From the IMG/VR virus record IMGVR_UViG_3300034198_003540, positions 1 to 24,061 of that record: DNA of 24,061 nt, one strand, 5' to 3'. Positions 3,006 to 22,729 of this stretch are shown here, in pieces (within the stretch, counting starts at the first letter, position 1; every line of letters begins with the position of its first letter). Origin of the DNA: a virus. The notes beneath the pieces are model-generated. The model was not told where the DNA came from. It saw only the letters and a list, made by a program, of their open reading frames with translations, and made no database searches. Position numbers and translations under genes: made by a program.

Positions 3006-4041
3006 TAAAGTTTACGCAACAAAAGAAATTATGAAAGATTTCGGAGAATTCATCACTACTGGTGAAAAAATATTAGAAATAAAAAGAGATTATAAAACAA
3101 TAAGCATCAGTCCAGCTATTGATCTAGCTCTTGGAGGAGGAGTAAAAGAAGGTTCTTGGCTTATGCTAAGCGGTCCCCCTAAAGGTGGCAAAACAACAAC
3201 ATCAATGCAAATTATTGCTAATTGTCAAGCTTTAGGTAGAAAGATTATTTATCTTGATATTGAAGGCCGACTAAAAGAAATGAACTTTGAAGTGCCGGGA
3301 ATTGATGCTAGCAAGGTAACAGTAATTAGATCTGAAAAAGAACCCCTGAGTGCTGAAAAATTTCTTGACATTGCTCGTAAATTGGTTTCGCTACCTGAGA
3401 ATGAAGGATGCGTTTTAGTTATCGACTCAATTTCATCTTTAATTCCTGAGAAAGATTTGGATGGTGACATTAACGGTATGACCCGTCCCGGTCTTCCAAA
3501 AATCTTATCGGACTTTGTTAAAAAGATGGGTCAGATAGTTCCAAATCAAAAATGTCTTATTATTATGATCACGCACATGATCACAAATACTAGTGGTTAT
3601 GGCGTAGGAAAAATGGCAGATGGTGGTGTTAAAATCCAGTTCCAATCCGATACAAGAATGGAAATAAAGTCTGTGTCTCCGTGGGAGATCGGAGGAAATA
3701 AAGATACTAAACAAGCAATTGGTCTTAAAGTAACTTGGAAAATCATATGGTCTTCAATAGGATCTCCTTATAAAGAATGCGAAAGCTGGATTCGGTTCGG
3801 TCATGGAATTGATAAAATTCAAGAAATCATTATGATCGCTGGAGAGATGGGTTTAATTAATGTGAGCGGGTCATGGTATAATCTAGATTATCTAGATACT
3901 CCGGAAGCGAAATTAGAAGCAGGGCTGGAGGCTGATGCCAAATTAAACCTTCAAGGACAAGAAAAGGTATATAATTTTCTATCTGCAAATCCAAAATCTT
4001 ACGAAATCCTAGAGAAAAAAGTTAAGGAAATGATAACTTGA
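2974..4041 (+). CDS. RecA-like recombinase (355 aa)
   Basis: A RecA/UvsX-type strand-exchange ATPase. The Walker A motif GPPKGGKT is at residues 67-74. The catalytic glutamate lies in YLDIEG (E97), matching the DxE position of RecA. Walker B is VLVIDSISSL (about 147-156). A loop after IMITH (around 197-225) corresponds to the DNA-binding L2 region. Length is typical of RecA. The sequence diverges from cellular RecA and looks closer to phage recombinases. Expected roles are homologous pairing, recombination-dependent replication and repair. The ATG has an AAGGA site nine bases upstream and overlaps the previous gene by 32 bases. The next gene starts within its stop region. Family is secure; the exact subfamily is not. 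Confidence 0.92.
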   Translation: MAKTPDPPTSDKVYATKEIMKDFGEFITTGEKILEIKRDYKTISISPAIDLALGGGVKEGSWLMLSGPPKGGKTTTSMQIIANCQALGRKIIYLDIEGRLKEMNFEVPGIDASKVTVIRSEKEPLSAEKFLDIARKLVSLPENEGCVLVIDSISSLIPEKDLDGDINGMTRPGLPKILSDFVKKMGQIVPNQKCLIIMITHMITNTSGYGVGKMADGGVKIQFQSDTRMEIKSVSPWEIGGNKDTKQAIGLKVTWKIIWSSIGSPYKECESWIRFGHGIDKIQEIIMIAGEMGLINVSGSWYNLDYLDTPEAKLEAGLEADAKLNLQGQEKVYNFLSANPKSYEILEKKVKEMIT

Positions 4042-4451
4042 ACATACTAGGATTAGACGGTAAAGAATATTCATGGATTCCAAGTAACAATATCGTTGAT
4101 ACAGACAAGAGATCTAGTTTACATATCAAAGCGCGAGAACTGCTAAAAGAAAAATTTCCAAACGATAGAGTTCTTGAAGAATTAGTCTTACCGGGAACAA
4201 AAACTCAAAGCAGAAAATCAACTTTAAAAGCTGATTTTTTTATTCCTATGAGAAACCTACTAGTAGAAGTTCATGGAGAACAGCATCTTGAGTTCAATAG
4301 CTTCTTTTTTAAAACCAAGCTTGACTTTTATAAAGCGCAAGCTAGGGATAAAGACAAAAAAAGATGGTGTGAACTTAATAAATTTACTTTACTAGAACTG
4401 TATCATAACGAATCCATAGAAGAGTGGAGAGATAAAGTATGGAAAATATAG
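4038..4451 (+). CDS. Vsr-like PD-(D/E)XK endonuclease (137 aa)
   Basis: A compact nuclease of the Vsr/DUF559-like PD-(D/E)XK group. The signature is D66 in KADFFIP, E77 in LLVEVHGEQH with H83, and downstream charged residues (RDKDKK, about 103-108). Related proteins are mismatch or homing endonucleases and small repair nucleases. Next to the recombinase it could cut recombination intermediates or damaged DNA; that is inference. The start is TTG at 4038, overlapping the recombinase stop, with AAGGA about ten bases upstream; no in-frame ATG lies nearby, so TTG is well supported. It shares its catalytic pattern with the gene at 21953, but lacks the helix-turn-helix and NUMOD-like N-terminal part of that protein. 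Confidence 0.75.
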   Translation: MNILGLDGKEYSWIPSNNIVDTDKRSSLHIKARELLKEKFPNDRVLEELVLPGTKTQSRKSTLKADFFIPMRNLLVEVHGEQHLEFNSFFFKTKLDFYKAQARDKDKKRWCELNKFTLLELYHNESIEEWRDKVWKI

Positions 4452-11154: not shown

Positions 11155-12651
11155 ATGATTCTACCTATTGTTACAACGCACTATTCATTGCTAAAAGGGT
11201 TCATCAAACCCAGCGAAGTTGCTAAAAAATGCAAAGAGTATGGATATACGCACTGTCTTATTGCAGACATAGATACGATTAGTGGTGTAATTGACTTTTT
11301 CTCTGAGATGAAAAAAGCGGGAATAGTTCCTGTTATTGGAATAAAAGAAGAATCGGGATATTACATCGCTAAATCTATAGAGGGTTATAAAAAGTTAATA
11401 CGTCTATCGTCTGGATATGATGTTGTTTTTGTGGACGAGGAATTGCAATTCTATAAAGAAAACGAATTGGCTTCATTTAATGCCTTTTACGCAAACAAAG
11501 AAGACGCTATCTTACACCAGATTGCTATTTGTTCGGGATTTAAGACAACATTAAAAAAATCAAAGAATATTGACTTAGGTAAATATAGAAAATTTTTTGA
11601 CAGAGATGACTTTCATTTTAAAAGAATGGATGAAATAAGCTACACGAAAACCCAAATAGAGAATACGGAAAAGTTGATATCTGAATTAAAAGATTATACA
11701 ATCTTATCTCAACCAAAACTGCCAAAAGTTGATTGTGGAAATATGAATGAAAATGATTATTTAACACAACTTTGTAGAAATGGATGGAAAGATAAGTTAT
11801 CTCACTTAAAAGGTGATACAAAGCAGGAATATATAAATAGAATTAAGTATGAGCTTAGTATTATTCATGGATTTAACTTATCAGGATACTTTCTTATTGT
11901 TGAAGATATCGTTAGATACGTTAGAGATAACGGATGGATGCCGGGACCGGGGCGTGGAAGTGCTGGAGGATGCTTAGTTTCATATTTATTATCTATAACA
12001 GAAATTGATCCTATTCCATATGACTTACTATTCTCAAGATTTTTAAATTCTGGACGATTTAGTAAAGATAACATTTCCTTGCCAGATATTGATATTGATG
12101 TTCCCACTAAACATCGAGACCAAATCATTGAATATTTAAAAACAAAATACGGTCACGATAAAGTATGCCAGATGATTACGCTTGGAAGATTGCAGGGTAG
12201 GGCCGCTTTAAAAGAAGTTCTCCGTATATGCTCTGATTTATCTCAAGCTGAAATGAATGAACTCACAAAAGCGCTTCCTCAAGAGTCGGCAATTTCTGAT
12301 GATCTTGAAGAAATGGAAATAAAGTCTATTATCTTATGGGCATTAGAAAATACTCCTGCAAAACTTGAAAAGTGGTGCAAGCTAGATAAGCAAAATAATT
12401 TAGTAGGAGAGTTGTCCGATCTGTTTTCACTTGCTATAAGAATAGAAGGAACTTATAAAAGCCAAGGAAAGCATCCCGCTGGGGTTGTTATATCAAATCA
12501 GGATTTAATTGAGGATGCTCCATTAATTAAAGATACTAATGGAGATAGGGTCGTAGGATTCGAAATGTCGGACTTAGATAAAGCGGGATTAACTAAATTT
12601 GATATTCTTGGTATTAATCTATTAGATAAAGTCATGGAGATAACACAATGA
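11155..12651 (+). CDS. DNA polymerase III alpha, N-terminal half (PHP-like and catalytic palm)
   Basis: First half (498 aa) of a C-family replicative polymerase. Residues 1-70 are a PHP-like domain missing its metal-binding histidines. GPGRGSAGG (264-272), the catalytic PDIDIDV (D311/D313/D315) and KFDILG (D483, matching E. coli D555) are the three palm signatures, so all catalytic acids are here. The reading frame stops 15 residues after D483, where intact enzymes continue towards the fingers. The ATG at 11155 (GGAG six bases after centre) is preferred over a TTG at 11116, which would sit inside the nuclease gene. No intein motif is present at the end. It must work with the protein at 13584 to form an active enzyme. 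Confidence 0.93.
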   Translation: MILPIVTTHYSLLKGFIKPSEVAKKCKEYGYTHCLIADIDTISGVIDFFSEMKKAGIVPVIGIKEESGYYIAKSIEGYKKLIRLSSGYDVVFVDEELQFYKENELASFNAFYANKEDAILHQIAICSGFKTTLKKSKNIDLGKYRKFFDRDDFHFKRMDEISYTKTQIENTEKLISELKDYTILSQPKLPKVDCGNMNENDYLTQLCRNGWKDKLSHLKGDTKQEYINRIKYELSIIHGFNLSGYFLIVEDIVRYVRDNGWMPGPGRGSAGGCLVSYLLSITEIDPIPYDLLFSRFLNSGRFSKDNISLPDIDIDVPTKHRDQIIEYLKTKYGHDKVCQMITLGRLQGRAALKEVLRICSDLSQAEMNELTKALPQESAISDDLEEMEIKSIILWALENTPAKLEKWCKLDKQNNLVGELSDLFSLAIRIEGTYKSQGKHPAGVVISNQDLIEDAPLIKDTNGDRVVGFEMSDLDKAGLTKFDILGINLLDKVMEITQ

Positions 12652-12860
12652 CGGATGATCGACTATTAAGTTATGCTAAAGTAATTAGAGAAGGAAACGA
12701 TATTGACTACAAAGATCTAAGTCTATCAGATCTAAGGAATCATGTACCTTGGTATAGAGATAAGAAAAATGGAGTATATCAAGTTCATAGTAACAGTTAC
12801 TCGCAAATTTTTTATAATATTGAAGAAGCAATTAACAAATTTTTAGAACTGAGGAAATAA
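12648..12860 (+). CDS. Small orphan protein between the polymerase halves (70 aa)
   Basis: Not recognised. A short, charged protein (start MTDDRLLSYAK, with HVPWYRDKKNGVYQVHSNSY in the middle) predicted as mixed alpha/beta. The ATG overlaps the stop of the polymerase N-half by four bases and its TAA overlaps the exonuclease ATG by one, so it is translationally coupled to both. It does not resemble an intein fragment or a homing nuclease. The location inside a replication complex operon suggests a structural subunit or a passenger; neither is shown. Confidence 0.65.
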   Translation: MTDDRLLSYAKVIREGNDIDYKDLSLSDLRNHVPWYRDKKNGVYQVHSNSYSQIFYNIEEAINKFLELRK

Positions 12861-13564
12861 TGGCACTTAACGCTTGGAAACAATATGCAATTTTTGACTT
12901 TGAAACAACTGGTAAAAATCCTAATGGATGCCAACTTACCCAAGTTTCATGTGTTATTATTCATGGTAAAAAACTAACAATTGAGCCAAATGCTATTTTT
13001 AATAGCGAAGTACGACCTGAATTTGATGACGAAAAAGCAATTGCAGCTGGATATGACCCGGTTGAACAAGCGGCTCTTGATATCACTAGGAAAACAAAGG
13101 AAGAATTACTTAAAGCTCCGGGACCAAAAGAAGTATGGGCTAAATTCGCAGAATTTATCAATAAGCATAATATTAAAGGTAGTTCATACTATGCTCCTAT
13201 CCCAGTCGGATATAATATCGTGAATTTCGATTTGCCTATTGTTAACAGATATTGCAAACAATATGGTCCATACGATGAGAAAAACGGTAAGCAAAAACTA
13301 TTCCATCAGATTTATAAAGTGGATATGATGGATAATTTATTCATGTGGTTTGAAAACAATGACGATGTTCAAAAACTCAATATGGATTATTTAAGAGATT
13401 ATCTTGGATTTCCTCAAAAAAGTAAAGATAACGCTCACAACGCTCTTTATGACGTAATTGATACAGCAAACATCTTCGTAAGATTTCTAAAATATCATAG
13501 AAAACTAAATGAGAAAACCAAGTTCGCCAAAGCTTTCGGTGATAAAATGGATATTGTAATATAA
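12860..13564 (+). CDS. DEDDh 3'-5' exonuclease (DnaQ/epsilon-like proofreader)
   Basis: Proofreading-type exonuclease of the DnaQ family (234 aa). Exo I is FDFETTG (D13, E15), Exo II is GYNIVNFDLPIV (D124), Exo III is NAHNALYD (H193, D198): the full DEDDh set. Encoded between the two halves of the polymerase, it is the natural epsilon-like partner, and the PHP-like domain of the polymerase appears dead, so proofreading would depend on this protein. There is no clear clamp-binding motif. The C-terminal 25 residues are basic. Strong GAGGAAATA ribosome-binding site. Confidence 0.93.
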   Translation: MALNAWKQYAIFDFETTGKNPNGCQLTQVSCVIIHGKKLTIEPNAIFNSEVRPEFDDEKAIAAGYDPVEQAALDITRKTKEELLKAPGPKEVWAKFAEFINKHNIKGSSYYAPIPVGYNIVNFDLPIVNRYCKQYGPYDEKNGKQKLFHQIYKVDMMDNLFMWFENNDDVQKLNMDYLRDYLGFPQKSKDNAHNALYDVIDTANIFVRFLKYHRKLNEKTKFAKAFGDKMDIVI

Positions 13565-13583
13565 ATACGGAGTGAGGAATTGC

Positions 13584-15170
13584 ATGACTGTTCTTAATAT
13601 TGATGATTTTACAGATGAAAAAACTTGGGATTTAATTTGTTCGGGCAATACTAAAGGAGTATTTCAACTAGAAAGTAAACTTGGATCAACTTGGGCTAAA
13701 AAGAGTCAACCTAGAAACATTCAAGAGCTTGCCGATCTTATTTCTATTATTCGTCCCGGAACCTTGCAAGCCGAGCTTGAGGGTAAAAACATGACGGCTC
13801 ACTATGTTGATAGAAAGCATAAACTAGAAGATACGGTTTATATTCATCAATCTCTTGAGCCAATTCTTAATAAAACATATGGAATTATTGTATATCAAGA
13901 ACAGGCCATGAAAATTGCGACATCTCTGGCAGGATTTACTCCAGAGGAAGCCGACTCGCTTAGAAAGGCTATGGGTAAAAAAGACGCCGCCCTTATGCAA
14001 GAGGTCAGGAAAAAGTTCGTTTTAGGGTGTCAAAATAAAAAGATTGTCTCAGATGCCGATGCCTCACAAATATTTGACTGGATTCAAGCATCTGCTAGAT
14101 ACTCTTTCAATGCAAGTCACGCTATCGCGTATGCAATTAATGCTTATAGATCAGCATATTGTAAAGCGAATAGCATTCTTAAATTTTATGAAGTTTATCT
14201 AAATCATGCGGAAAATAAGCCCGACAAAGCAGATGAAGATGATGAAATTAAAGAGTTAGTAATGGATGCTAAAAAGTTTAATATTGAAGTATATCCTCCA
14301 AGGCTAAATCATCTATACGAAAGATTTACTATGGATGAGTCAAAAAATATTATATACTTTGGATACAAAGATGTCAGATATCTTGGAGACAGGGAACGAG
14401 AAAAACTTCAAGCCGCGATTATTGACGCAGAAAAGAAGTTAAATAAAAAGCTACACGAGTTTACATGGGCCGATATCTTGTTTTCCATTGCAATTAATAT
14501 TAAAAAGAATGCAGTTCAATCTTTAATCAGTGTTGGGGCTTTTAATGGGGATAAAAATCGGTTAACCAGAAATCAGATGCTTTATGAGTTTGCTGTTTGG
14601 AATAGATTAACAGACAGAGAATTCAACTGGTTATTTGATCAATGGAGCGTTAATAAAGAAAAATATAAAAACGTTTTATCTTTAGTAGAGCTATTAATCA
14701 ATAAGATGCCTAAGATAACATCTAGTAGGTTAACAGTATTAATGGATCTTTTAAAAATATTACAGAATCCAACTCATAATTTAGAAGATGATTACGGATG
14801 GATTGCTGATATCGAAGAGAAAAATATGGGGTGTTCATTAACCTGTTCTAAAACAGACGCTTTAGGTACGGATTTTGCAGCTACGCCTTGCAGAGAATTA
14901 ATGGACTCAGGACTAAAGCATGGATGTATGGCTGTTAAAATATCCAGATCTAATGAGTATAAAATTAAAAAAGGACAATCTGAAGGTCGATCTATGTGCT
15001 TCTTAACAGTTGAAGATGGGTCAGGGTCAATTGATTCAGTAATTTTATTCCCAGATGATTACGAGAATTTTAAAGGGTTGCTTTTTAAAGGAAATACGGT
15101 ATTATTAATAGGAGAGATCGAAAAAAGAAAAGAACTCTCTTTTATTGTCAAAAATGTTATTCAAATTTAA
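13584..15170 (+). CDS. DNA polymerase III alpha, C-terminal half (fingers, HhH, OB fold)
   Basis: Second half (528 aa) of the C-family polymerase. It begins at the family's IPLDD-like segment (VLNIDDFTDEKTW), then GVFQLES, IIRPG, and the fingers block YQEQAMKIATSLAGFTPEEA with LRKAMGKK (about 104-133), all conserved in Pol III alpha. A helix-hairpin-helix region (LISVGAFNGDKNR, about 313-325) and a C-terminal OB fold (FLTVEDGSGSIDSVIL, about 472-487) follow; the protein ends right after the OB fold, so the tau-binding region of bacterial alpha is absent, and I see no internal clamp motif. I chose the ATG at 13584, with GAGG six bases upstream, over a GTG at 13572. Confidence 0.93.
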   Translation: MTVLNIDDFTDEKTWDLICSGNTKGVFQLESKLGSTWAKKSQPRNIQELADLISIIRPGTLQAELEGKNMTAHYVDRKHKLEDTVYIHQSLEPILNKTYGIIVYQEQAMKIATSLAGFTPEEADSLRKAMGKKDAALMQEVRKKFVLGCQNKKIVSDADASQIFDWIQASARYSFNASHAIAYAINAYRSAYCKANSILKFYEVYLNHAENKPDKADEDDEIKELVMDAKKFNIEVYPPRLNHLYERFTMDESKNIIYFGYKDVRYLGDREREKLQAAIIDAEKKLNKKLHEFTWADILFSIAINIKKNAVQSLISVGAFNGDKNRLTRNQMLYEFAVWNRLTDREFNWLFDQWSVNKEKYKNVLSLVELLINKMPKITSSRLTVLMDLLKILQNPTHNLEDDYGWIADIEEKNMGCSLTCSKTDALGTDFAATPCRELMDSGLKHGCMAVKISRSNEYKIKKGQSEGRSMCFLTVEDGSGSIDSVILFPDDYENFKGLLFKGNTVLLIGEIEKRKELSFIVKNVIQI

Positions 15171-15182
15171 CGAGGATTTATT

Positions 15183-15530
15183 ATGAATATTTGTGTATTT
15201 GTTGGAAAACTTGTAGCTAATCCAGAATTAACAACCACCAAGGACTCTTGTGTTGTAAATTTTACATTAGCAGTTGAAGACTATAGGAAAGATAAGGATG
15301 GAACAAAGCATCGTAAGGTGCATTTCTTAGATTTTGAAGCTTGGGATACAGGCGCTACTACGATAGCGAAGCATTTTAAAAAGGGTGACATGCTTTTTAT
15401 TGAATCCGAAGCCCGTCAGCATAAGTGGATTTCTGCTGACCAATCGAAGAAACAAAAAATTGTATTCAGAGTTAAAACTTTTAAATCAGGAATGAAATCG
15501 GATTCTAATTTAACACAGGAACAAGAGTAA
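15183..15530 (+). CDS. ssb: Single-stranded DNA-binding protein (SSB)
   Basis: OB-fold SSB of bacterial type (115 aa): MNICVFVGKLVANPEL start, VVNFTLAVEDYR strand, HFLDFEAWDTGA and the ARQHKW strand are all family positions. It coats single-stranded DNA at the fork. Unlike cellular SSB it lacks the long linker and the acidic DDxPF tail; it ends in SNLTQEQE, so recruitment of partners through the tail is not expected. It directly follows the polymerase C-half with an AGGA ribosome-binding site. Confidence 0.92.
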   Translation: MNICVFVGKLVANPELTTTKDSCVVNFTLAVEDYRKDKDGTKHRKVHFLDFEAWDTGATTIAKHFKKGDMLFIESEARQHKWISADQSKKQKIVFRVKTFKSGMKSDSNLTQEQE

Positions 15531-15541
15531 TAGGACATAAA

Positions 15542-17194
15542 ATGTTAAGAAAAAAAGTCTTATTTGTTACGGAAGCATCTTTTCATGCAACTGGGTATTC
15601 TGTCTATACAAAAGAAGTATTGTCAAGACTGAATAAGATACCTGAACTTGAAGTAGCAGAGCTTGCATGTTATGCTAATGAAGATAGTCCAGAAATCAAA
15701 GATATCCCTTGGAAATTTTATGCAAATGCTCCTAATCAAAAAAATAATGAAGAAGTAGCATATTATAACAATTCAATGAGTGCAAAATTTGGTGAATTAA
15801 AATTCAATCATGTATTGTTGGAGTTCCAGCCCGATTTCGTAATGGATATTCGTGACTGGTGGATGTTGGAATTTGAAGAAAGATCTCCTTTCAGAGAATT
15901 CTTTAATTGGGCGATTATGCCTACAGTGGATGCCGCTCCTCAAAATCAATTATGGATCGACACTTATTCAGATGCAGATGCTGTGTTCTCATATTCTGAA
16001 TTCGGCAGAGATACAATGCTAGATCAATCTAGTAAAATAAAATTTGTAGATGTAGCATCTCCTTGTGCAAGCGAAGTTTTTAATAAAGTTGCAAATAAAA
16101 AGTCATTTAAACAATCTCATGGAATTGATCCAGATTCAATTATTTTTGGTACAGTTATGCGTAACCAAAGACGTAAGCTGTATCCGGACTTGTTTAAAGC
16201 TTTTAGATTATTTTTAGATCAAAATCCGAAATTAACTAACTGTTACTTATATTGTCATACAGGATATCCTGATGTTGGTTGGGATATTCCATCTTTGATT
16301 CAGGAAAATGAACTGGCAAACAAAGTTCTGTTGACTTATAAGTGTCGGAAATGTGGACATGTTTATCCGTCATTTTTCCATGACTGCGTTGCATTCTGCA
16401 ATAACTGTAAAACTTTCTCTTCTACTTTAGTCAGTATTAATAACAAAATAGAAGAAAACGAACTTAATAACGTTTATAATCTATTTGATGTATATATCCA
16501 GTGGGCTAATAGCGAAGGATGGGGTATGCCTCAGCTTGAAGCTGCATATGCGGGTCTTCCTGTTGTAAGTATGAATTATTCAGCAATGGAATCATTAATA
16601 GAAAACATTAAAGGTATTCCTGTTGATCCTATCTCTTATTATAAAGAATTAGAAACCGGATGCATGAGAGCAGTGCCAGACAATAAAAAGTTGGCGGAAG
16701 TTATTGCGACACTTGCAACTGATAATCAAAAAAGAAACTATATTGCTGATAGATGTTATTCTACTTCTAGAAAAGTATATAATTGGGATTACACTGCTAA
16801 AAAGTGGGCCGATTATTTCCTAAATACACCTGTAAAGTCCTTTAACGAGACATGGGGTAGCGCAGCAAGAATATTTAATCCTGCTAAATCTTTACCAGAA
16901 AATATCAACCAGATATCCCCATCTGAGCAAGTTAGCTGGCTTTTTACTAATGTTCTTGGCAAACCTCAATTGATTAATGGTGCGATGTGGAAAAGAATCG
17001 TAAGGGATTTAACGTATGGAATTACAGCATCTTCCTATGTTCCCGGATATTATTCAAATGATTTTTCAATGCCTGACTCAGAAAAAAGAATTGAAGAATT
17101 CAATATTAGTAAAGCTTTTGAAATGTTGTATAATTCAAGAATGCAATTAAATCATTGGGAAAACGTTAGACTGGAGAAAGTTAAGAAATCATGA
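15542..17194 (+). CDS. GT4-like glycosyltransferase with inserted zinc ribbon (550 aa)
   Basis: GT-B fold, GT4-like retaining glycosyltransferase. The N-terminal Rossmann domain starts KVLFVTEASFHATGYSVY. The second domain begins near FGTVMRNQRRKLYPDL (202-217, donor phosphate contacts) and has the EGWGMPQLE motif (E325 and E333, the E-x7-E pair), then AYAGLPVVS. Between these, residues 268-289 form a zinc ribbon (C268, C271, C286, C289, plus C282), an unusual insertion. About 130 residues after the fold (420-550) are not recognised. Acceptor is unknown: cell-surface glycan, virion protein or DNA are all open. First gene of the glycosylation island, twelve bases after ssb, so apparently co-transcribed with the replisome. 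Confidence 0.88.
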   Translation: MLRKKVLFVTEASFHATGYSVYTKEVLSRLNKIPELEVAELACYANEDSPEIKDIPWKFYANAPNQKNNEEVAYYNNSMSAKFGELKFNHVLLEFQPDFVMDIRDWWMLEFEERSPFREFFNWAIMPTVDAAPQNQLWIDTYSDADAVFSYSEFGRDTMLDQSSKIKFVDVASPCASEVFNKVANKKSFKQSHGIDPDSIIFGTVMRNQRRKLYPDLFKAFRLFLDQNPKLTNCYLYCHTGYPDVGWDIPSLIQENELANKVLLTYKCRKCGHVYPSFFHDCVAFCNNCKTFSSTLVSINNKIEENELNNVYNLFDVYIQWANSEGWGMPQLEAAYAGLPVVSMNYSAMESLIENIKGIPVDPISYYKELETGCMRAVPDNKKLAEVIATLATDNQKRNYIADRCYSTSRKVYNWDYTAKKWADYFLNTPVKSFNETWGSAARIFNPAKSLPENINQISPSEQVSWLFTNVLGKPQLINGAMWKRIVRDLTYGITASSYVPGYYSNDFSMPDSEKRIEEFNISKAFEMLYNSRMQLNHWENVRLEKVKKS

Positions 17195-18282
17195 GAATAA
17201 ATTATATTAGCAATTATAGAGATGGTACAGCGTGGTCGAAAGCGGCCACCTATAATATTCTTGCTTTAAAAGAAGCTGGATATGATGTTTATTTAAAATT
17301 GATTAGATATAACAACGAAGTATCAACCTTATTACACCCTGACTTGTTGGATATTGAATTAAAACATGCTAATGAGTTTGATATGACAATTTTTCATTCA
17401 TTGCCTATCAATTTTTCATATGAAAAAAATAATTCTAAGACTCAATTTGTAGGAATAGCGGCTTTAGAATCTTATACTTTAGATAATATATACTGGCAAA
17501 AGAAATTTAAACTCATGGATAGAGTTTTCTCTGCCAATTCATTAACTAAAAATACTTTAAATAATTATGAAATTAGTTCTAGCGTATTTAAACAATCATT
17601 TGACTTTGATGCAGTGTTTAATAGTGTAAAGAAATCCAAGATCAATATCTTAGACAACTCTTTTAACTTTGTATTTGAAGGGGACTCTTCTAAGATTTCA
17701 AATCTTGAAAGTCTATTAATCGCATTTCATTCAGAGTTCTCTGTTCATGAACCAGTAAATATTGTTATTAAATCTTTATCTAGCGTAGATGAGTTTTGCA
17801 CTAATGTAAAAAAGAATCTAAAATTATCTAAAAGATATAAGAAAGAAGTAACGGTTTACGGAGGATTGAATGATGAAGATTATTACAGTATTCTTCGTCA
17901 TTGTCATGCTTTTGTGTGTCCAAATAGAGGCATTTCATGGTGTCAATCAGCGCTAGAAGCTATGACTATTGGATTGCCAGTTATTTACACAGAAGGAAAC
18001 GGGCTTGATGATTATGTGAACGGTTATTCAATGCCAGTTTCTTCTACGTTAGATAACTGCTACGGAGCTGAAGGCTTTGATGATTTATTAACTGGTAGAG
18101 ATCTTTGGTCAAACCCAAAGATCAGTAGTTTAAGATATCAGATGAGATCAATATATGAAACATATAAAAATAATCTATCTCAATATCTAGAAATTAGCAA
18201 AGCAACAGTTCAAAACGCATCTCAGTATAATTATAAAACTATGAAAAATCATATTGATAGTATTATTGGAGGTATTAAATGA
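17191..18282 (+). CDS. GT-B glycosyltransferase, divergent (363 aa)
   Basis: GT-B glycosyltransferase-like: N-terminal Rossmann start MRINYISNYRDGTAWSKA, a FVFEGDSSKI strand at the second domain, and the donor-site block GISWCQSALEAMTIGLPVIY, matching the GT4 pattern around the second Glu of E-x7-E. The first Glu of that pair is not evident (CPNRG precedes it), so catalysis may differ or be lost. The start overlaps the previous gene (ATGA). Together with its neighbour it probably extends the same glycan, but that is inference. Confidence 0.78.
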   Translation: MRINYISNYRDGTAWSKAATYNILALKEAGYDVYLKLIRYNNEVSTLLHPDLLDIELKHANEFDMTIFHSLPINFSYEKNNSKTQFVGIAALESYTLDNIYWQKKFKLMDRVFSANSLTKNTLNNYEISSSVFKQSFDFDAVFNSVKKSKINILDNSFNFVFEGDSSKISNLESLLIAFHSEFSVHEPVNIVIKSLSSVDEFCTNVKKNLKLSKRYKKEVTVYGGLNDEDYYSILRHCHAFVCPNRGISWCQSALEAMTIGLPVIYTEGNGLDDYVNGYSMPVSSTLDNCYGAEGFDDLLTGRDLWSNPKISSLRYQMRSIYETYKNNLSQYLEISKATVQNASQYNYKTMKNHIDSIIGGIK

Positions 18283-18695
18283 AAGTATATATTGGAAAAA
18301 ATGAGGCTCCAGAAGAATTTAAGAGAATTAGCGAGCCGGGAATTTTAAATTATGTAGCAGACGATTCTGAATGTGAAATTATTGTCCTAGACGGCGTACT
18401 TAAAAAAATGCCAATAGATGATGTTGCCAACTATTTAACGCTTGCAAGAAAAAAATTGCGATTAAATGGAGTCTTGACAGTAAAAGATTTAGATTTTGAT
18501 ATCTTATCATATATACATCAAAGAAACTCAGATTTGGCATCTATTAATAAAGCTATTTTTCAAAATGGTTCTATAGAATCTGTTTTTAACTTTGAATATG
18601 TATTGCAAATTCTTAGTAATAGCATGGGATTAGAACTTCAGGTTAAGAATCTTGAGGGATTAGATTTTATTTTAACATTTAGGAGAGTTTCATGA
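18279..18695 (+). CDS. Methyltransferase-like protein lacking the SAM motif (138 aa)
   Basis: Resembles the second half of small class I SAM-dependent methyltransferases found in glycan clusters: IIVLDGVLKKMPIDDVANYL, followed by ARKKLRLNGVLTVKDLDFD, is the usual post-motif-II helix and LKPGGxL strand. The glycine-rich SAM-binding motif I is not present; the N-terminus MKVYIGKNEAPEEFKRIS looks like a shortened, degenerate version of that region. It may be an inactive or binding-only member, or work with another subunit. Strong GGAGG site upstream, and the ATG overlaps the preceding stop. Moderate confidence in the fold, low in activity. Confidence 0.6.
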   Translation: MKVYIGKNEAPEEFKRISEPGILNYVADDSECEIIVLDGVLKKMPIDDVANYLTLARKKLRLNGVLTVKDLDFDILSYIHQRNSDLASINKAIFQNGSIESVFNFEYVLQILSNSMGLELQVKNLEGLDFILTFRRVS

Positions 18696-19426
18696 GTTTG
18701 ACAAATTTGGACAATTGTAAAGAATGTAAATTTGCAATCATGGGGGCGGAAGGTCAATCCGACTGCTCCCTTGGTAAATTGAATTTTTTAAAATCTCCGG
18801 TTCAACCTATTGATTTTTCGTATTTTAACTTAAGTCGGATATGTATTTTTAAAAGATCTGAAAAATGGGATGGAGATATTCAAAAAGAAACCGCTCCTAA
18901 AGTCGGATATATCTTTATTTTAAAAGATAGAGATAAACTAAATGAGCTAAAAGAAAACATCTTAAAAGTTAAGAATTGCATATGGGTTGGCGTATATCAT
19001 CCATTTGAAGATCTACAGAAAGAAATTATTGAATTTACAGCAAAATCTTTAGACCACTCCCGTATTAATATTGTATGTAATTTTTCAGGAGTAGACGGTA
19101 ATGATCTTTATAAACTTGATAAATTTGAAAAAAATTATATAAATGGTTGGACAATAGTCAATATTGTAGGTGAAGAGTTTGATGTAGAAAAATTAAGCAA
19201 TACTCTAGATTCATTTGTAAATAATAAGATGGGGCGAGCTAGCATTATATATAATAAAGATTCTAATAGCATTAACGAGCTATGCTTCTTTAATATCTAC
19301 TATAAATTTTATAAGGGTAGCCACTCTTCATTAGACACAGTTCTGGACAAAGTAATACATCAGACTGTTATAGAAAAAGCCTTGCAAGAAAATAGTCAAC
19401 TAGTTAAAGACTGGAGTGATATTTAA
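18692..19426 (+). CDS. Unknown protein with N-terminal Cys cluster (244 aa)
   Basis: The N-terminus has cysteines C9, C12, C25 and C51 (CKECKF, then DCSLG, then RICIF), a pattern compatible with a zinc or iron-sulfur site. From about residue 70 an alpha/beta domain follows (KVGYIFILKDRDK, then NCIWVGVYHP, INIVCNFSG, GWTIVNIVGEEFD) whose strand-helix rhythm recalls GT-A glycosyltransferase folds, but I do not see a DxD motif. Not recognised as a named family. It is tightly coupled (ATGA) to its neighbours in the glycosylation island, so a role in that pathway is likely by context. Confidence 0.65.
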   Translation: MSLTNLDNCKECKFAIMGAEGQSDCSLGKLNFLKSPVQPIDFSYFNLSRICIFKRSEKWDGDIQKETAPKVGYIFILKDRDKLNELKENILKVKNCIWVGVYHPFEDLQKEIIEFTAKSLDHSRINIVCNFSGVDGNDLYKLDKFEKNYINGWTIVNIVGEEFDVEKLSNTLDSFVNNKMGRASIIYNKDSNSINELCFFNIYYKFYKGSHSSLDTVLDKVIHQTVIEKALQENSQLVKDWSDI

Positions 19427-20037
19427 TGAGAACTTCCTTTTTAGTTTATGATATAAAAAATCAAGCTGAATTTGTTGGGTCTATGAATAGTGTAATGCTA
19501 GCAAATGCTGATGGTGATATTAATATTGTTATTGATAACAGTTCAAACTGTATAGAAATAGCCAATGTTATGACAAAAGGTTGCTGCGGTCAACCCGAAC
19601 CAGTTATTGTAAAAGATGACTTGTTTACAGTTAGAACTCAAATGCGTGATAACAGATTAATTCGAATTATAAGCTATGATGGAATACTAAGTGCAGAAAA
19701 ACAAATATCGGAAGGGCTAAAGAGAGCCGCGACAGGCGATTCCATTACCTTGATGAAGGGTGGAGCAAAAGTTCACAGAGATTTTATATCTGCGATTAGT
19801 GAAATTTTTAACTCTTCAGTAGTTGGCGGCATTTTTGCAGATACAGTAGATAATATGCATTATTCATATTTTACAAGTTTAAGGCCAAATAAACCTTTTA
19901 GAGAGAATTTGAATAATCTAACGTTTAGATCAGTCTTTTTACCATATATTAATTCTGGCAACATATTTGATATTGTGAAAATTTTACATAATCATTCCAT
20001 CGTTGTTCACTTGCCTAAGCCGTATTTTAGAACATGA
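19426..20037 (+). CDS. Unknown protein in glycosylation island (203 aa)
   Basis: No family recognised with confidence. Beta-alpha rhythm at the N-terminus (TSFLVYDIKNQAEFVGSM, DINIVIDNSSN) and a later segment VVGGIFADTVDNMHYSYF with a KPFREN region resemble a reduced GT-A-type glycosyltransferase; the usual DxD is not clear, although FADTVDN could be the degenerate equivalent. It starts at the last base of the previous gene and overlaps the next. Function by context only. Confidence 0.62.
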   Translation: MRTSFLVYDIKNQAEFVGSMNSVMLANADGDINIVIDNSSNCIEIANVMTKGCCGQPEPVIVKDDLFTVRTQMRDNRLIRIISYDGILSAEKQISEGLKRAATGDSITLMKGGAKVHRDFISAISEIFNSSVVGGIFADTVDNMHYSYFTSLRPNKPFRENLNNLTFRSVFLPYINSGNIFDIVKILHNHSIVVHLPKPYFRT

Positions 20038-20741
20038 ATAACAGATATGTAAAAAAAATAAAAAATAAGCAGCCGGATAATATTGATGTCATTATATTAA
20101 CGGCTGGCATTGGTTCTAAGATTAAATCCTATGAGCCACGCAGTCTTATAAAGCTAAACAACAAAACTTTAATTGAGCATCAAATGGATGCCTTTAAACA
20201 AAAACTTCCAAAGTGTGACTTTATTACTGTTGTTGGATATGAATGTAATAAAATAATTAGAAAAATACAAGGAAAGACCAAAATAGTAGAAAATTGTATT
20301 TATAATGAATGCAATAATGGCGAAAGTCTTAGACTTGGAGTTAATAATAGTTTATCTGATAATTTATTTATCATTCACGGCGACATAAATTTTGACAAAA
20401 ACATTATAGACGAGTTTACATATGGCGAGTCTTTCGTTATAACTGTAAACGGCTTGGAAGAGAGAGAAGTGGGAATAACGTCCACTGATGGTTATATCAA
20501 TAGTTTTTCATACGGATTAGAAAAAAAGTGGGGCCAAATAGTTTTTTTAAATTCAACTGACGTAGAAGTGTTGCGAAAATTACTTCTTAGGAATGATTTT
20601 AATACTAAGTTTATGTTAACTTTTGAAATATTAAATAAGCTTATAGAATTTGGAGTTAGATTTAAAGAAATAGAAGTTGACCCTAAAAAGATAAAAGAAA
20701 TAGATACCGCAAAGGATATAATAAATGAATATTTTAACTGA
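20034..20741 (+). CDS. Nucleotidyltransferase-like protein (sugar or choline type)
   Basis: Nucleotidyl-transferase fold of the GlmU/LicC kind (235 aa), which activates a sugar-1-phosphate or phosphocholine with an NTP. Residues 18-50 carry the nucleotide loop and acceptor segment: VIILTAGIGSKIKSYEPRSL, then KLNNKTLIEHQ. The expected PK is PR here (PRSL), a conservative change at a position usually Lys. IIHGDINFD (D117) fits the metal-binding Asp. The N-terminal 16 residues are basic and extra. It could supply activated donors to the glycosyltransferases upstream. LicC-like, MobA-like and sugar nucleotidyltransferases cannot be separated by eye. Confidence 0.72.
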   Translation: MNNRYVKKIKNKQPDNIDVIILTAGIGSKIKSYEPRSLIKLNNKTLIEHQMDAFKQKLPKCDFITVVGYECNKIIRKIQGKTKIVENCIYNECNNGESLRLGVNNSLSDNLFIIHGDINFDKNIIDEFTYGESFVITVNGLEEREVGITSTDGYINSFSYGLEKKWGQIVFLNSTDVEVLRKLLLRNDFNTKFMLTFEILNKLIEFGVRFKEIEVDPKKIKEIDTAKDIINEYFN

Positions 20742-21519: not shown

Positions 21520-21968
21520 ATATTGGATTTTTAATTGATGGAATTGGTAATAGCGATTTATCTTATAGCATATTAAAATTAATAAATACTGAACTTATTA
21601 ATAGCACTGAACATTCGCCAATCATATTTGTAAGAAATTTATATCCCCCAGTTATTAGCCCATTATGTCTAATGACAAATTTAGCTTCTGTAAATAATTT
21701 CCAAGGCATTGCGATTGCAACAGATTTACAAGCAGCAGACACTTTGGATCAATCAAACTCTCCATGTGAGAAATGGTTATATTTATGGGATATTGAATGG
21801 CTAAACGAGATGGTTAATTATGACGTAGCTATTAAAATTTTAAATAGTTTTAATATTATCTGTAGGAGTGAAAGTCATCAAATCATTATAAAGAACTTTT
21901 GTGGCAAAAAGGCTCACATTATAGATAATCTTAACTGGAGTGAATTAAAAGAATGCTTGAATTTGTAA
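21516..21968 (+). CDS. Hypothetical protein in glycosylation island (150 aa)
   Basis: Not recognised. Alpha/beta start MNIGFLIDGIGNSDLSYSIL, like the N-terminal strand of a Rossmann-type domain, and a YLWDIEWLNEM segment in the middle. At 150 aa it could be a single half of a GT-B fold, perhaps pairing with the preceding 264-aa protein; that is a guess from size and order. AAGGAG site upstream. Its coding sequence is extremely AT-rich: 12 G/C in the 60 bases from 21541. Confidence 0.6.
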   Translation: MNIGFLIDGIGNSDLSYSILKLINTELINSTEHSPIIFVRNLYPPVISPLCLMTNLASVNNFQGIAIATDLQAADTLDQSNSPCEKWLYLWDIEWLNEMVNYDVAIKILNSFNIICRSESHQIIIKNFCGKKAHIIDNLNWSELKECLNL

Positions 21969-22729
21969 TAGAAAAAATTGTCCAAGATTACAGGGATGGA
22001 CAAAGCGTAAGACAAATCGCCGCAACTTATAAAACATATCCAAACAAGATTTTAGACATGCTGAAGAAATACGGCGAACCTGTTAGAAGTAAAAGTGAGG
22101 CCCAAAAAATGGCTCTTGAATTAGGCAAGAGTAAGCCTCCTTTTCTAGGTAAAAAAAGAACCGAAGCTGACAAAGACAATATAAGTAAGGCTCGCGCGAA
22201 AGCGTGGGCCAATATTTCCGACGAACAACGCCAGTCGTTCAAAAATGGCGCTAAGGCGCGATGGGAAGCTTTAAGCGATTCAGACAAGGCTGATATGCAA
22301 AGTCGCGCTGGAGAGGCTCTCAGGGCCGCTAGCGTGGAAGGCTCAAAGGCAGAGCGTTTTTTGTATGAAGACTTGTTACGCAAAGGCTACATTGTTGAGA
22401 TGCATAAAAAAGGTTTAATTGCGGGTGAGAAGTATGAAATTGACTTGTTTTTACCCGAACTGAAGACTATAATAGAGATAGATGGTCCTCAACATTTTCT
22501 TCCCGTTTTTGGAGAAGAGAGGCTTGACAAGACGATTCGATATGATATAATAAAAAATGGCGTTCTGATCTCCAAGGGGTTTTGTGTGATTCGTGTAAAA
22601 TATATGACTAAACATATCTCACGTAAAAAAACAAATGACTTGTTGCTCATAGTGTCTGAAGAGTTAGAACGTATTAAAAACCAATTTCCTGAACAAGGCC
22701 ACAGACTAATTGAGGTAGAATTATTATGA
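21953..22729 (+). CDS. Free-standing homing-endonuclease-like protein (HTH, NUMOD3-like, Vsr-like nuclease)
   Basis: Order of parts: an HTH-like segment (residues 10-40, QSVRQIAATYKTYPNKIL), NUMOD3-like DNA-binding repeats (about 63-125: FLGKKRTEADKDNISKAR, then SDEQRQSFKNGAKARW and SDSDKADMQSRAGEA), and a Vsr-like nuclease (about 130-215) with D164 (YEIDLFLP), E175 and D177 (IIEIDGPQHF), H181 and D192. This layout fits the EDxHD homing endonucleases known from phages (I-Bth0305I type). It is not inside an intron or intein here. The NUMOD region is much richer in GC (33 of 60 bases from 22201) than the genes around, suggesting recent acquisition. It overlaps both neighbours by a few bases, so it is integrated into the operon. 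Confidence 0.82.
   Translation: MLEFVIEKIVQDYRDGQSVRQIAATYKTYPNKILDMLKKYGEPVRSKSEAQKMALELGKSKPPFLGKKRTEADKDNISKARAKAWANISDEQRQSFKNGAKARWEALSDSDKADMQSRAGEALRAASVEGSKAERFLYEDLLRKGYIVEMHKKGLIAGEKYEIDLFLPELKTIIEIDGPQHFLPVFGEERLDKTIRYDIIKNGVLISKGFCVIRVKYMTKHISRKKTNDLLLIVSEELERIKNQFPEQGHRLIEVELL
22524..22551 (+). promoter_or_regulatory. Consensus sigma-70 promoter with extended -10
   Basis: TTGACA at 22524-22529, a 16-base spacer ending TGA, and TATAAT at 22546-22551: exact hexamers plus the extended TGn. It is inside the endonuclease gene, with the predicted start about 165 bases before the annealing-protein gene at 22726, which it probably drives. Confidence 0.65.

What the first reader, a model, noticed from the sequence alone, without database searches (positions are those of the whole stretch)
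11155..15170. Pol III alpha split into two proteins, with the exonuclease gene between the halves and no intein
The N-half carries PDIDIDV and KFDILG (all palm acids) and stops 15 residues later. The C-half restarts at the family's next conserved block (VLNIDDFTDEKTW, GVFQLES) with a proper start and ribosome-binding site. Between them lie a 70-aa orphan and a DEDDh exonuclease. Nothing at either break looks like a split-intein fragment, so the enzyme probably assembles non-covalently. The break falls inside the catalytic domain, unlike the intein-mediated split DnaE of cyanobacteria. It may be a fractured gene in which a mobile element was replaced by useful genes.
Basis: partly seen in the sequence, partly recalled or inferred. 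Interest (0 to 1): 0.72.

Follow-up and report, generated by a model that had tools for sequence, protein, structure and literature searches.

The report
Phage replicase split into two proteins
In a large, mostly uncultured group of phages the enzyme that copies the DNA (DNA polymerase III alpha) is made as two separate proteins, with the gene for a probable proofreading enzyme between the two halves; this is real, old and conserved, and most likely works by the halves simply sticking together, which is a new variant of split phage polymerases already known.

Summary
A Pol III alpha (DnaE-type) gene is split at the palm/fingers boundary (E. coli DnaE about 566/585). All three catalytic aspartates lie in the N-half (11155-12651); fingers, HhH and OB domains lie in the C-half (13584-15170). 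A DEDDh exonuclease and a small ORF lie between. It is not an assembly error, intron, frameshift or split intein: 116 distinct loci (56 clusters at 80% identity) share the split, always with the exonuclease between the halves. All parts are under strong purifying selection, and 15 of 15 long contigs carry no other detectable family A, B or C polymerase. The '70-aa orphan' is a conserved operon member (76 of 116 loci). Sister phages have the same split with the halves adjacent and the exonuclease elsewhere. One virus nested inside the clade has re-fused the halves and split off the OB domain instead. Best explanation: two polypeptides reassemble non-covalently into one replicase (not shown biochemically). 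The homing-element origin is possible but unproven. Split Pol III alpha genes are already published in other phages, so this is a new variant of a known kind.

The parts
11155..12651 (+). Pol III alpha N-half: degenerate PHP + palm (all three catalytic Asp) + thumb, 498 aa
12648..12860 (+). conserved 70-aa small protein (the 'orphan'); ATGA overlap with the N-half stop
   Evidence: found in 76 of 116 split loci
12860..13564 (+). DEDDh 3'-5' exonuclease, probable proofreading subunit; one-base overlap with the small ORF
   Evidence: AlphaFold2 pLDDT 94.5 and DEDDh fold
13569..13577 (+). ribosome-binding site of the C-half (GGAGTGAGG, position approximate)
   Evidence: read from sequence
13584..15170 (+). 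Pol III alpha C-half: fingers + HhH + OB fold, 528 aa
10119..11153 (+). PDDEXK (Cas4/RecB-like) nuclease, the frequent upstream neighbour in the same operon
15183..15530 (+). single-stranded DNA-binding protein, the frequent downstream neighbour in the same operon

Best explanation
This is the replicative C-family DNA polymerase of a tailed phage, made as two polypeptides by an old gene fission at the linker between palm and fingers. Shown: two ORFs with their own stop and start signals, compact and largely overlapping genes, all polymerase domains divided between the halves, conservation in over 100 related contigs, one origin of the split in this clade, purifying selection on both halves, no other detectable polymerase in long relatives, and a later natural re-fusion. 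Inferred: the N-half (PHP, palm, thumb) and C-half (fingers, HhH, OB) dock through the normal palm-fingers contacts to form the active site without a covalent link. The exonuclease between them probably serves as the proofreading subunit of the same complex. The small protein may help assembly; its role is unknown.
For: 116 distinct split loci, 91 clusters at 95% and 56 at 80% identity, all with the exonuclease between the halves. The N-half stops mostly 12-21 residues after KFDxLG. Small or negative intergenic distances in most loci. Median dN/dS: N 0.032, C 0.026, exonuclease 0.023, small ORF 0.06. In 15 of 15 long contigs (93-173 kb) there is exactly one PF07733 and one PF17657 match and no PF00476 or PF00136 match. 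The split clade including L028/L197 is supported 100/100. The fused virus L015 nests inside it; placing it outside is rejected (AU p=0.012 and 0.001), so evolution has rejoined the halves into one chain. In L181 the N and C genes are 6.8 kb apart, excluding read-through. Precedent: split gp43A/43B of Aeromonas phage 25 co-purify and are active, and split NrdA of Aeh1 is functional (PMC2988022).
Against: No biochemical or structural evidence for the complex; a complex could not be modelled with these tools. PMC3666897 describes the core domains of C-family polymerases as lying in one polypeptide, so assembly in trans has no tested precedent known to me in this family without an intein. Contigs are fragments, so another polymerase could be missed. 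Selection on both halves does not by itself prove that they bind each other. The proofreading role of the exonuclease rests on motif, fold and gene position only.
Confidence: 0.85

Rival explanations
1. Fractured gene: a homing endonuclease inserted into an intact Pol III alpha gene, broke it, and was later replaced by the small ORF and the exonuclease. This concerns how the split arose and is compatible with the best explanation of how it works.
For: HNH-type nucleases lie in the gap of L002, L009, L062, L103, L174 and L188, L088 by motif, and a VSR-like homing nuclease in L019. Bacillus phage KLEB27-3 has an HNH endonuclease between two Pol III alpha genes at E. coli 612/621. Alicyclobacillus phage KKP_3916 has homing nucleases in pol-gene gaps and a group I intron.
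Against: The sister lineage L028/L197 has the same split with adjacent halves and no insert. The nucleases sit in different sub-intervals, as expected of later arrivals. The window's gap has none.
Confidence: 0.35
2. Plain fission by mutations creating stop and start sites in the palm-fingers linker, with halves first adjacent; the exonuclease and later the small ORF then moved in between. Also about origin, not function.
For: L028 and L197 halves are adjacent and their DEDDh exonuclease lies elsewhere, about 13 kb upstream. The small ORF was not detected in early-branching members L012, L019 and L035. Rossellomorea phage phiT1 shows the same break site with only a 49-aa ORF between.
Against: The exonuclease could instead have been lost from the gap in the L028/L197 lineage; the tree cannot tell the direction.
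Confidence: 0.45
3. The halves are joined at RNA or protein level (intron, trans-splicing intein, frameshift or bypass), so that a normal single chain is made.
For: Introns and inteins do occur in Pol III alpha genes of other phages: group I intron in KKP_3916, intein in L028 and an intein-like insert in Rhodococcus phage Peregrin.
Against: No Rfam match in the window or in eight relatives, while the control finds a group I intron in KKP_3916. The gap encodes genes under purifying selection. Only 12 residues after KFDILG and about 5 before the C-half homology leave no room for intein fragments. Gap sizes range from 0.6 to 6.8 kb.
Confidence: 0.03
4. One half, or both, is a relic or has another function, and the phage uses the host polymerase.
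For: PHP of the N-half is degenerate (H-x-H motif lost, N-half about 140 residues shorter than in L004).
Against: Low dN/dS on both halves; all polymerase catalytic residues kept; operon with helicase, primase and SSB; no gene order without exonuclease or with a missing half among 116 loci (which by design counts loci with both halves). PHP metal-site loss is reported to go with a separate exonuclease (PMC3666897).
Confidence: 0.05

Closest known systems
Split minimal DNA polymerase III alpha of group 2.2 jumbo phages (PMC7824862)
   Same: Pol III alpha catalytic module encoded as two phage proteins proposed to reconstitute an enzyme, with no intein mentioned in the passages read
   Different: There the module is minimal, lies in distant genes and accompanies a family B polymerase; here all DnaE domains are present, the genes form one operon around an exonuclease, and no other polymerase was found
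Two-gene Pol III alpha of Microbacterium cluster EF phages (PMC7302621); similar gene pair in Microbacterium phage Pharpay examined here
   Same: two genes replace one Pol III alpha gene in a cultured phage
   Different: in Pharpay the break is at PHP/palm (E. coli 272/291), no exonuclease between, and it falls outside the clade in the quick tree
Rossellomorea phage phiT1 gp20/gp18 (PV767480)
   Same: break at the same place (E. coli 575/585)
   Different: only a 49-aa ORF between; ML tree places it outside the clade, though one clade is not rejected (AU p=0.10)
T4-like split family B polymerase gp43A/43B (PMC2988022)
   Same: split phage replicase whose halves co-purify and are active
   Different: family B, not C; unrelated fold; associated with a seg endonuclease or an untranslated sequence
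Cyanobacterial split DnaE with trans-splicing intein (reviewed in PMC7765530)
   Same: C-family polymerase encoded by two genes and broken inside the polymerase core
   Different: halves carry intein fragments and are joined covalently; break about 170 residues further on (CFN site)
Bacillus phage KLEB27-3 Pol III alpha with HNH endonuclease between halves (OM634661)
   Same: two polymerase genes with a nuclease gene between them
   Different: the nuclease is a homing-type HNH; break at E. coli 612/621

Membership tests
C-family DNA polymerase (DnaE / Pol III alpha) | palm with three catalytic Asp (PDxDxD and KFDxLG) | tested here: met
C-family DNA polymerase (DnaE / Pol III alpha) | PF07733 and PF17657 matched over most of their length | tested here: met
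   1-260/260 and 26-165/166
C-family DNA polymerase (DnaE / Pol III alpha) | domain order PHP, palm, thumb, fingers, HhH, OB | tested here: met
   in this order but over two ORFs; PHP degenerate, HhH match below Pfam cut-off
single-chain organisation usually stated for C-family polymerases (PMC3666897) | four core domains in one polypeptide | tested here: not met
   cyanobacterial dnaE genes also break this rule before splicing
split-intein DnaE (cyanobacteria) | intein fragments at both sides of the break | tested here: not met
   no Pfam intein match in N-half, small ORF or C-half; no extra sequence at the ends
split-intein DnaE (cyanobacteria) | break at the Y/CFN site | tested here: not met
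   break at E. coli 566/585; CFN-equivalent site intact in the C-half
homing-endonuclease fractured gene | homing nuclease gene between the halves | tested here: not met
   none in the window gap; present in some relatives
group I or II intron-interrupted gene | intron RNA structure between exons | tested here: not met
   positive control
minimal split Pol III alpha of group 2.2 jumbo phages | minimal module, distant genes, co-occurring family B polymerase | tested here: not met
   full domain set, adjacent genes, no PF00136 in 15 long relatives
DEDDh 3'-5' exonuclease | DEDDh motif and RNase H-like exonuclease fold | tested here: met
   (Z 18.8, rmsd 2.6, 170 aligned to Pol III epsilon 2gui; Z 20.6 to DinG)
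Pol III epsilon-type proofreading subunit | binds the polymerase and proofreads | not testable with these tools
   PHROG_192 'DNA polymerase exonuclease subunit' match E=5e-28 is a lead only
YkuJ-like fold (small ORF) | same fold and family | tested here: inconclusive
   Z 5.7, rmsd 2.5, 58 aligned to 2ffg; no Foldseek or Pfam support

The most novel reading that the evidence does not exclude
A whole phage clade replicates with an obligately multi-part C-family polymerase: palm and fingers are separate chains held together non-covalently, and the exonuclease and the 70-aa protein are built-in assembly or regulatory subunits, so that the palm-fingers joint itself is free or regulated. The re-fused L015 lineage would be a natural control for what the missing covalent link does.
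Probability: 0.25. Interest if true: 0.75.

Novelty: new variant of a known kind. Interest (0 to 1): 0.55.

Why it matters
C-family replicases are usually described as single chains for PHP, palm, thumb and fingers. A large phage clade that splits the enzyme exactly between palm and fingers, without an intein, and apparently depends on it alone, gives a ready system to ask whether the palm-fingers link is needed, how split replicases stay assembled and processive, and whether the exonuclease or the small protein helps. The nested virus with re-fused halves allows a direct comparison.

Tried and rejected
Assembly error or frameshift: rejected by 116 loci. Intron: no Rfam match. Split intein: none at the break. 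Independent splitting in each lineage of this clade: disfavoured by the tree. L015 as the ancestral fused state: rejected. No cultured phage lies close to the window: best matches to the halves under 40% identity, exonuclease at most 28.6%. The small ORF has no Pfam family and no significant Foldseek match. Two paper searches for split Pol III alpha gave nothing direct; a later one found the jumbo phage case. Not done: complex prediction (the tool takes one chain), co-evolution of residue pairs across the break.

Full report
WHAT IS THERE. The window is a 24,061-base IMG/VR virus record from a tailed phage: PhoH, UvsX/RecA-like recombinase, dUTPase, DnaB helicase, primase, dNMP kinase, PDDEXK nuclease, then the locus in question, SSB and glycosyltransferases. 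The N-half ORF runs 11155-12651 and matches the whole PF07733 model; the C-half ORF matches PF17657 from position 26 and an OB domain. In PHROG_405 the halves cover 247-608 and 625-1054. Aligned to E. coli DnaE the N-half ends at about 566 and the C-half starts at about 585, after the third catalytic Asp and at the palm/fingers boundary (domain limits from established knowledge of the E. coli structure). The most likely C-half start is ATG 13584 behind GGAGTGAGG.

IT IS CONSERVED. Scans of viral contigs and HMM mapping gave 116 distinct split loci including the window, every one with the exonuclease between the halves; they form 91 clusters at 95%, 56 at 80% and 23 at 70% identity of the N-half. 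These loci were found by similarity to the window and its relatives, so the count describes this clade, not phages at large. The N-half ends mostly 12-21 residues after KFDxLG, and neighbouring genes usually overlap or nearly touch. The 70-aa ORF is present in 76 of the 116 (alignments). dN/dS is far below 1 for all four genes. In 15 long relatives there is one N-half, one C-half and no family A or B polymerase; completeness of these contigs is unknown.

EVOLUTION. In a 37-taxon tree all members with the exonuclease between the halves plus L028/L197 form one clade (100/100), nested among intact polymerases. L028/L197 have the same break with adjacent halves and their only DEDDh exonuclease about 13 kb upstream. 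L015, seen as near-identical contigs in six samples, has N-half and most of the C-half in one 854-aa ORF and the OB domain in a separate 175-aa ORF, with the small ORF and exonuclease now between those two. It nests inside the split clade; trees with it outside are rejected (AU p=0.012 and 0.001). This is best read as re-fusion. Further splits of the C-half occur in L027 and L052. A quick tree used 41 taxa; long-branch taxa were dropped.

OTHER SPLITS IN CULTURED PHAGES. Pol III alpha is broken elsewhere too: phi13:1 at E. coli 397/398, Jayan 400/401, Maenad 398/402, KKP_3916 at several sites with homing nucleases and one group I intron, Peregrin 226/283, Pharpay 272/291, KLEB27-3 612/621 with an HNH endonuclease between, and phiT1 at 575/585, the same place as the window. 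Some of these may be introns or sequencing errors; they were not studied further. Published precedents: Microbacterium cluster EF phages have two genes related to Pol III alpha (PMC7302621), and group 2.2 jumbo phages have a minimal Pol III alpha split into two distant genes beside a family B polymerase (PMC7824862).

INTEINS AND MOBILE NUCLEASES. None is at the window's break. L028 has an intein with an HNH motif inside its C-half at RY/CFN, the cyanobacterial DnaE site, and Peregrin has an intein-like insert three residues further on. HNH or VSR-like nucleases lie in the gap of at least eight relatives. This keeps the fractured-gene origin open, but the sister lineage without an insert means it is not shown.

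THE TWO PROTEINS BETWEEN. The exonuclease keeps the DEDDh residues across a 52-row alignment; its model (pLDDT 94.5) is a DEDDh exonuclease, about equally close to DinG, ExoI, PolC exonuclease, RNase T and Pol III epsilon, so the fold does not single out proofreading. The small protein is predicted with high confidence (pLDDT 91.6) as helix, four strands, helix; the only raised structural match is YkuJ, Z 5.7, too weak to use. The PHP part of the N-half has lost the H-x-H motif and is short; loss of PHP metal sites is reported to go with a separate exonuclease (PMC3666897).

HOW IT MOST LIKELY WORKS. The two chains dock through the natural palm-fingers interface to form one replicase, with the exonuclease as likely proofreading subunit. 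The split, its conservation and the re-fusion are shown; docking, activity and proofreading are inferred. Split gp43 of Aeromonas phage 25 and split NrdA of Aeh1 show that such reassembly works in other enzymes (PMC2988022).

VERDICT. New variant of a known kind.

Noticed in passing
L028:4815-7370 (insert at about residues 223-501 of the C-half): Complete intein with HNH motif in the C-half of a split Pol III alpha, at the cyanobacterial DnaE intein site (RY/CFN); close relative L197 lacks it.
   Followed up: partly
L199:2396-5275 (Rhodococcus phage Peregrin gp100): Intein-like insert of about 165 residues at FNK/SHS in Pol III alpha; not recognised by Pfam.
   Followed up: no
L015:3492-9249: Re-fused N-half and fingers in one ORF with the OB domain split off, in near-identical contigs from six samples.
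   Followed up: yes
L027:4968-6529 and L052: C-half split a second time in members of the clade.
   Followed up: partly
L181, gap of 6.8 kb between N-half and C-half: Metabolic genes (aldehyde dehydrogenase, class III aminotransferase and others) lie between the polymerase halves.
   Followed up: no
window 4038-4451 and 21953-22729: Two small VSR/DUF559-like nucleases; the first matches a PHROG named homing endonuclease, the second matches Pfam DUF559.
   Followed up: partly
L215 (Rossellomorea phage phiT1, 3489-6771): Cultured phage with Pol III alpha broken at the same site as the window, only a 49-aa ORF between; possibly convergent.
   Followed up: partly
L201 (Alicyclobacillus phage KKP_3916): Pol III alpha in several pieces with a group I intron, a LAGLIDADG ORF and an HNH-repeat ORF, all annotated as hypothetical proteins.
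   Followed up: partly
window 15542-20741: Cluster of glycosyltransferase and nucleotidyltransferase-like genes directly after the replication operon.
   Followed up: no
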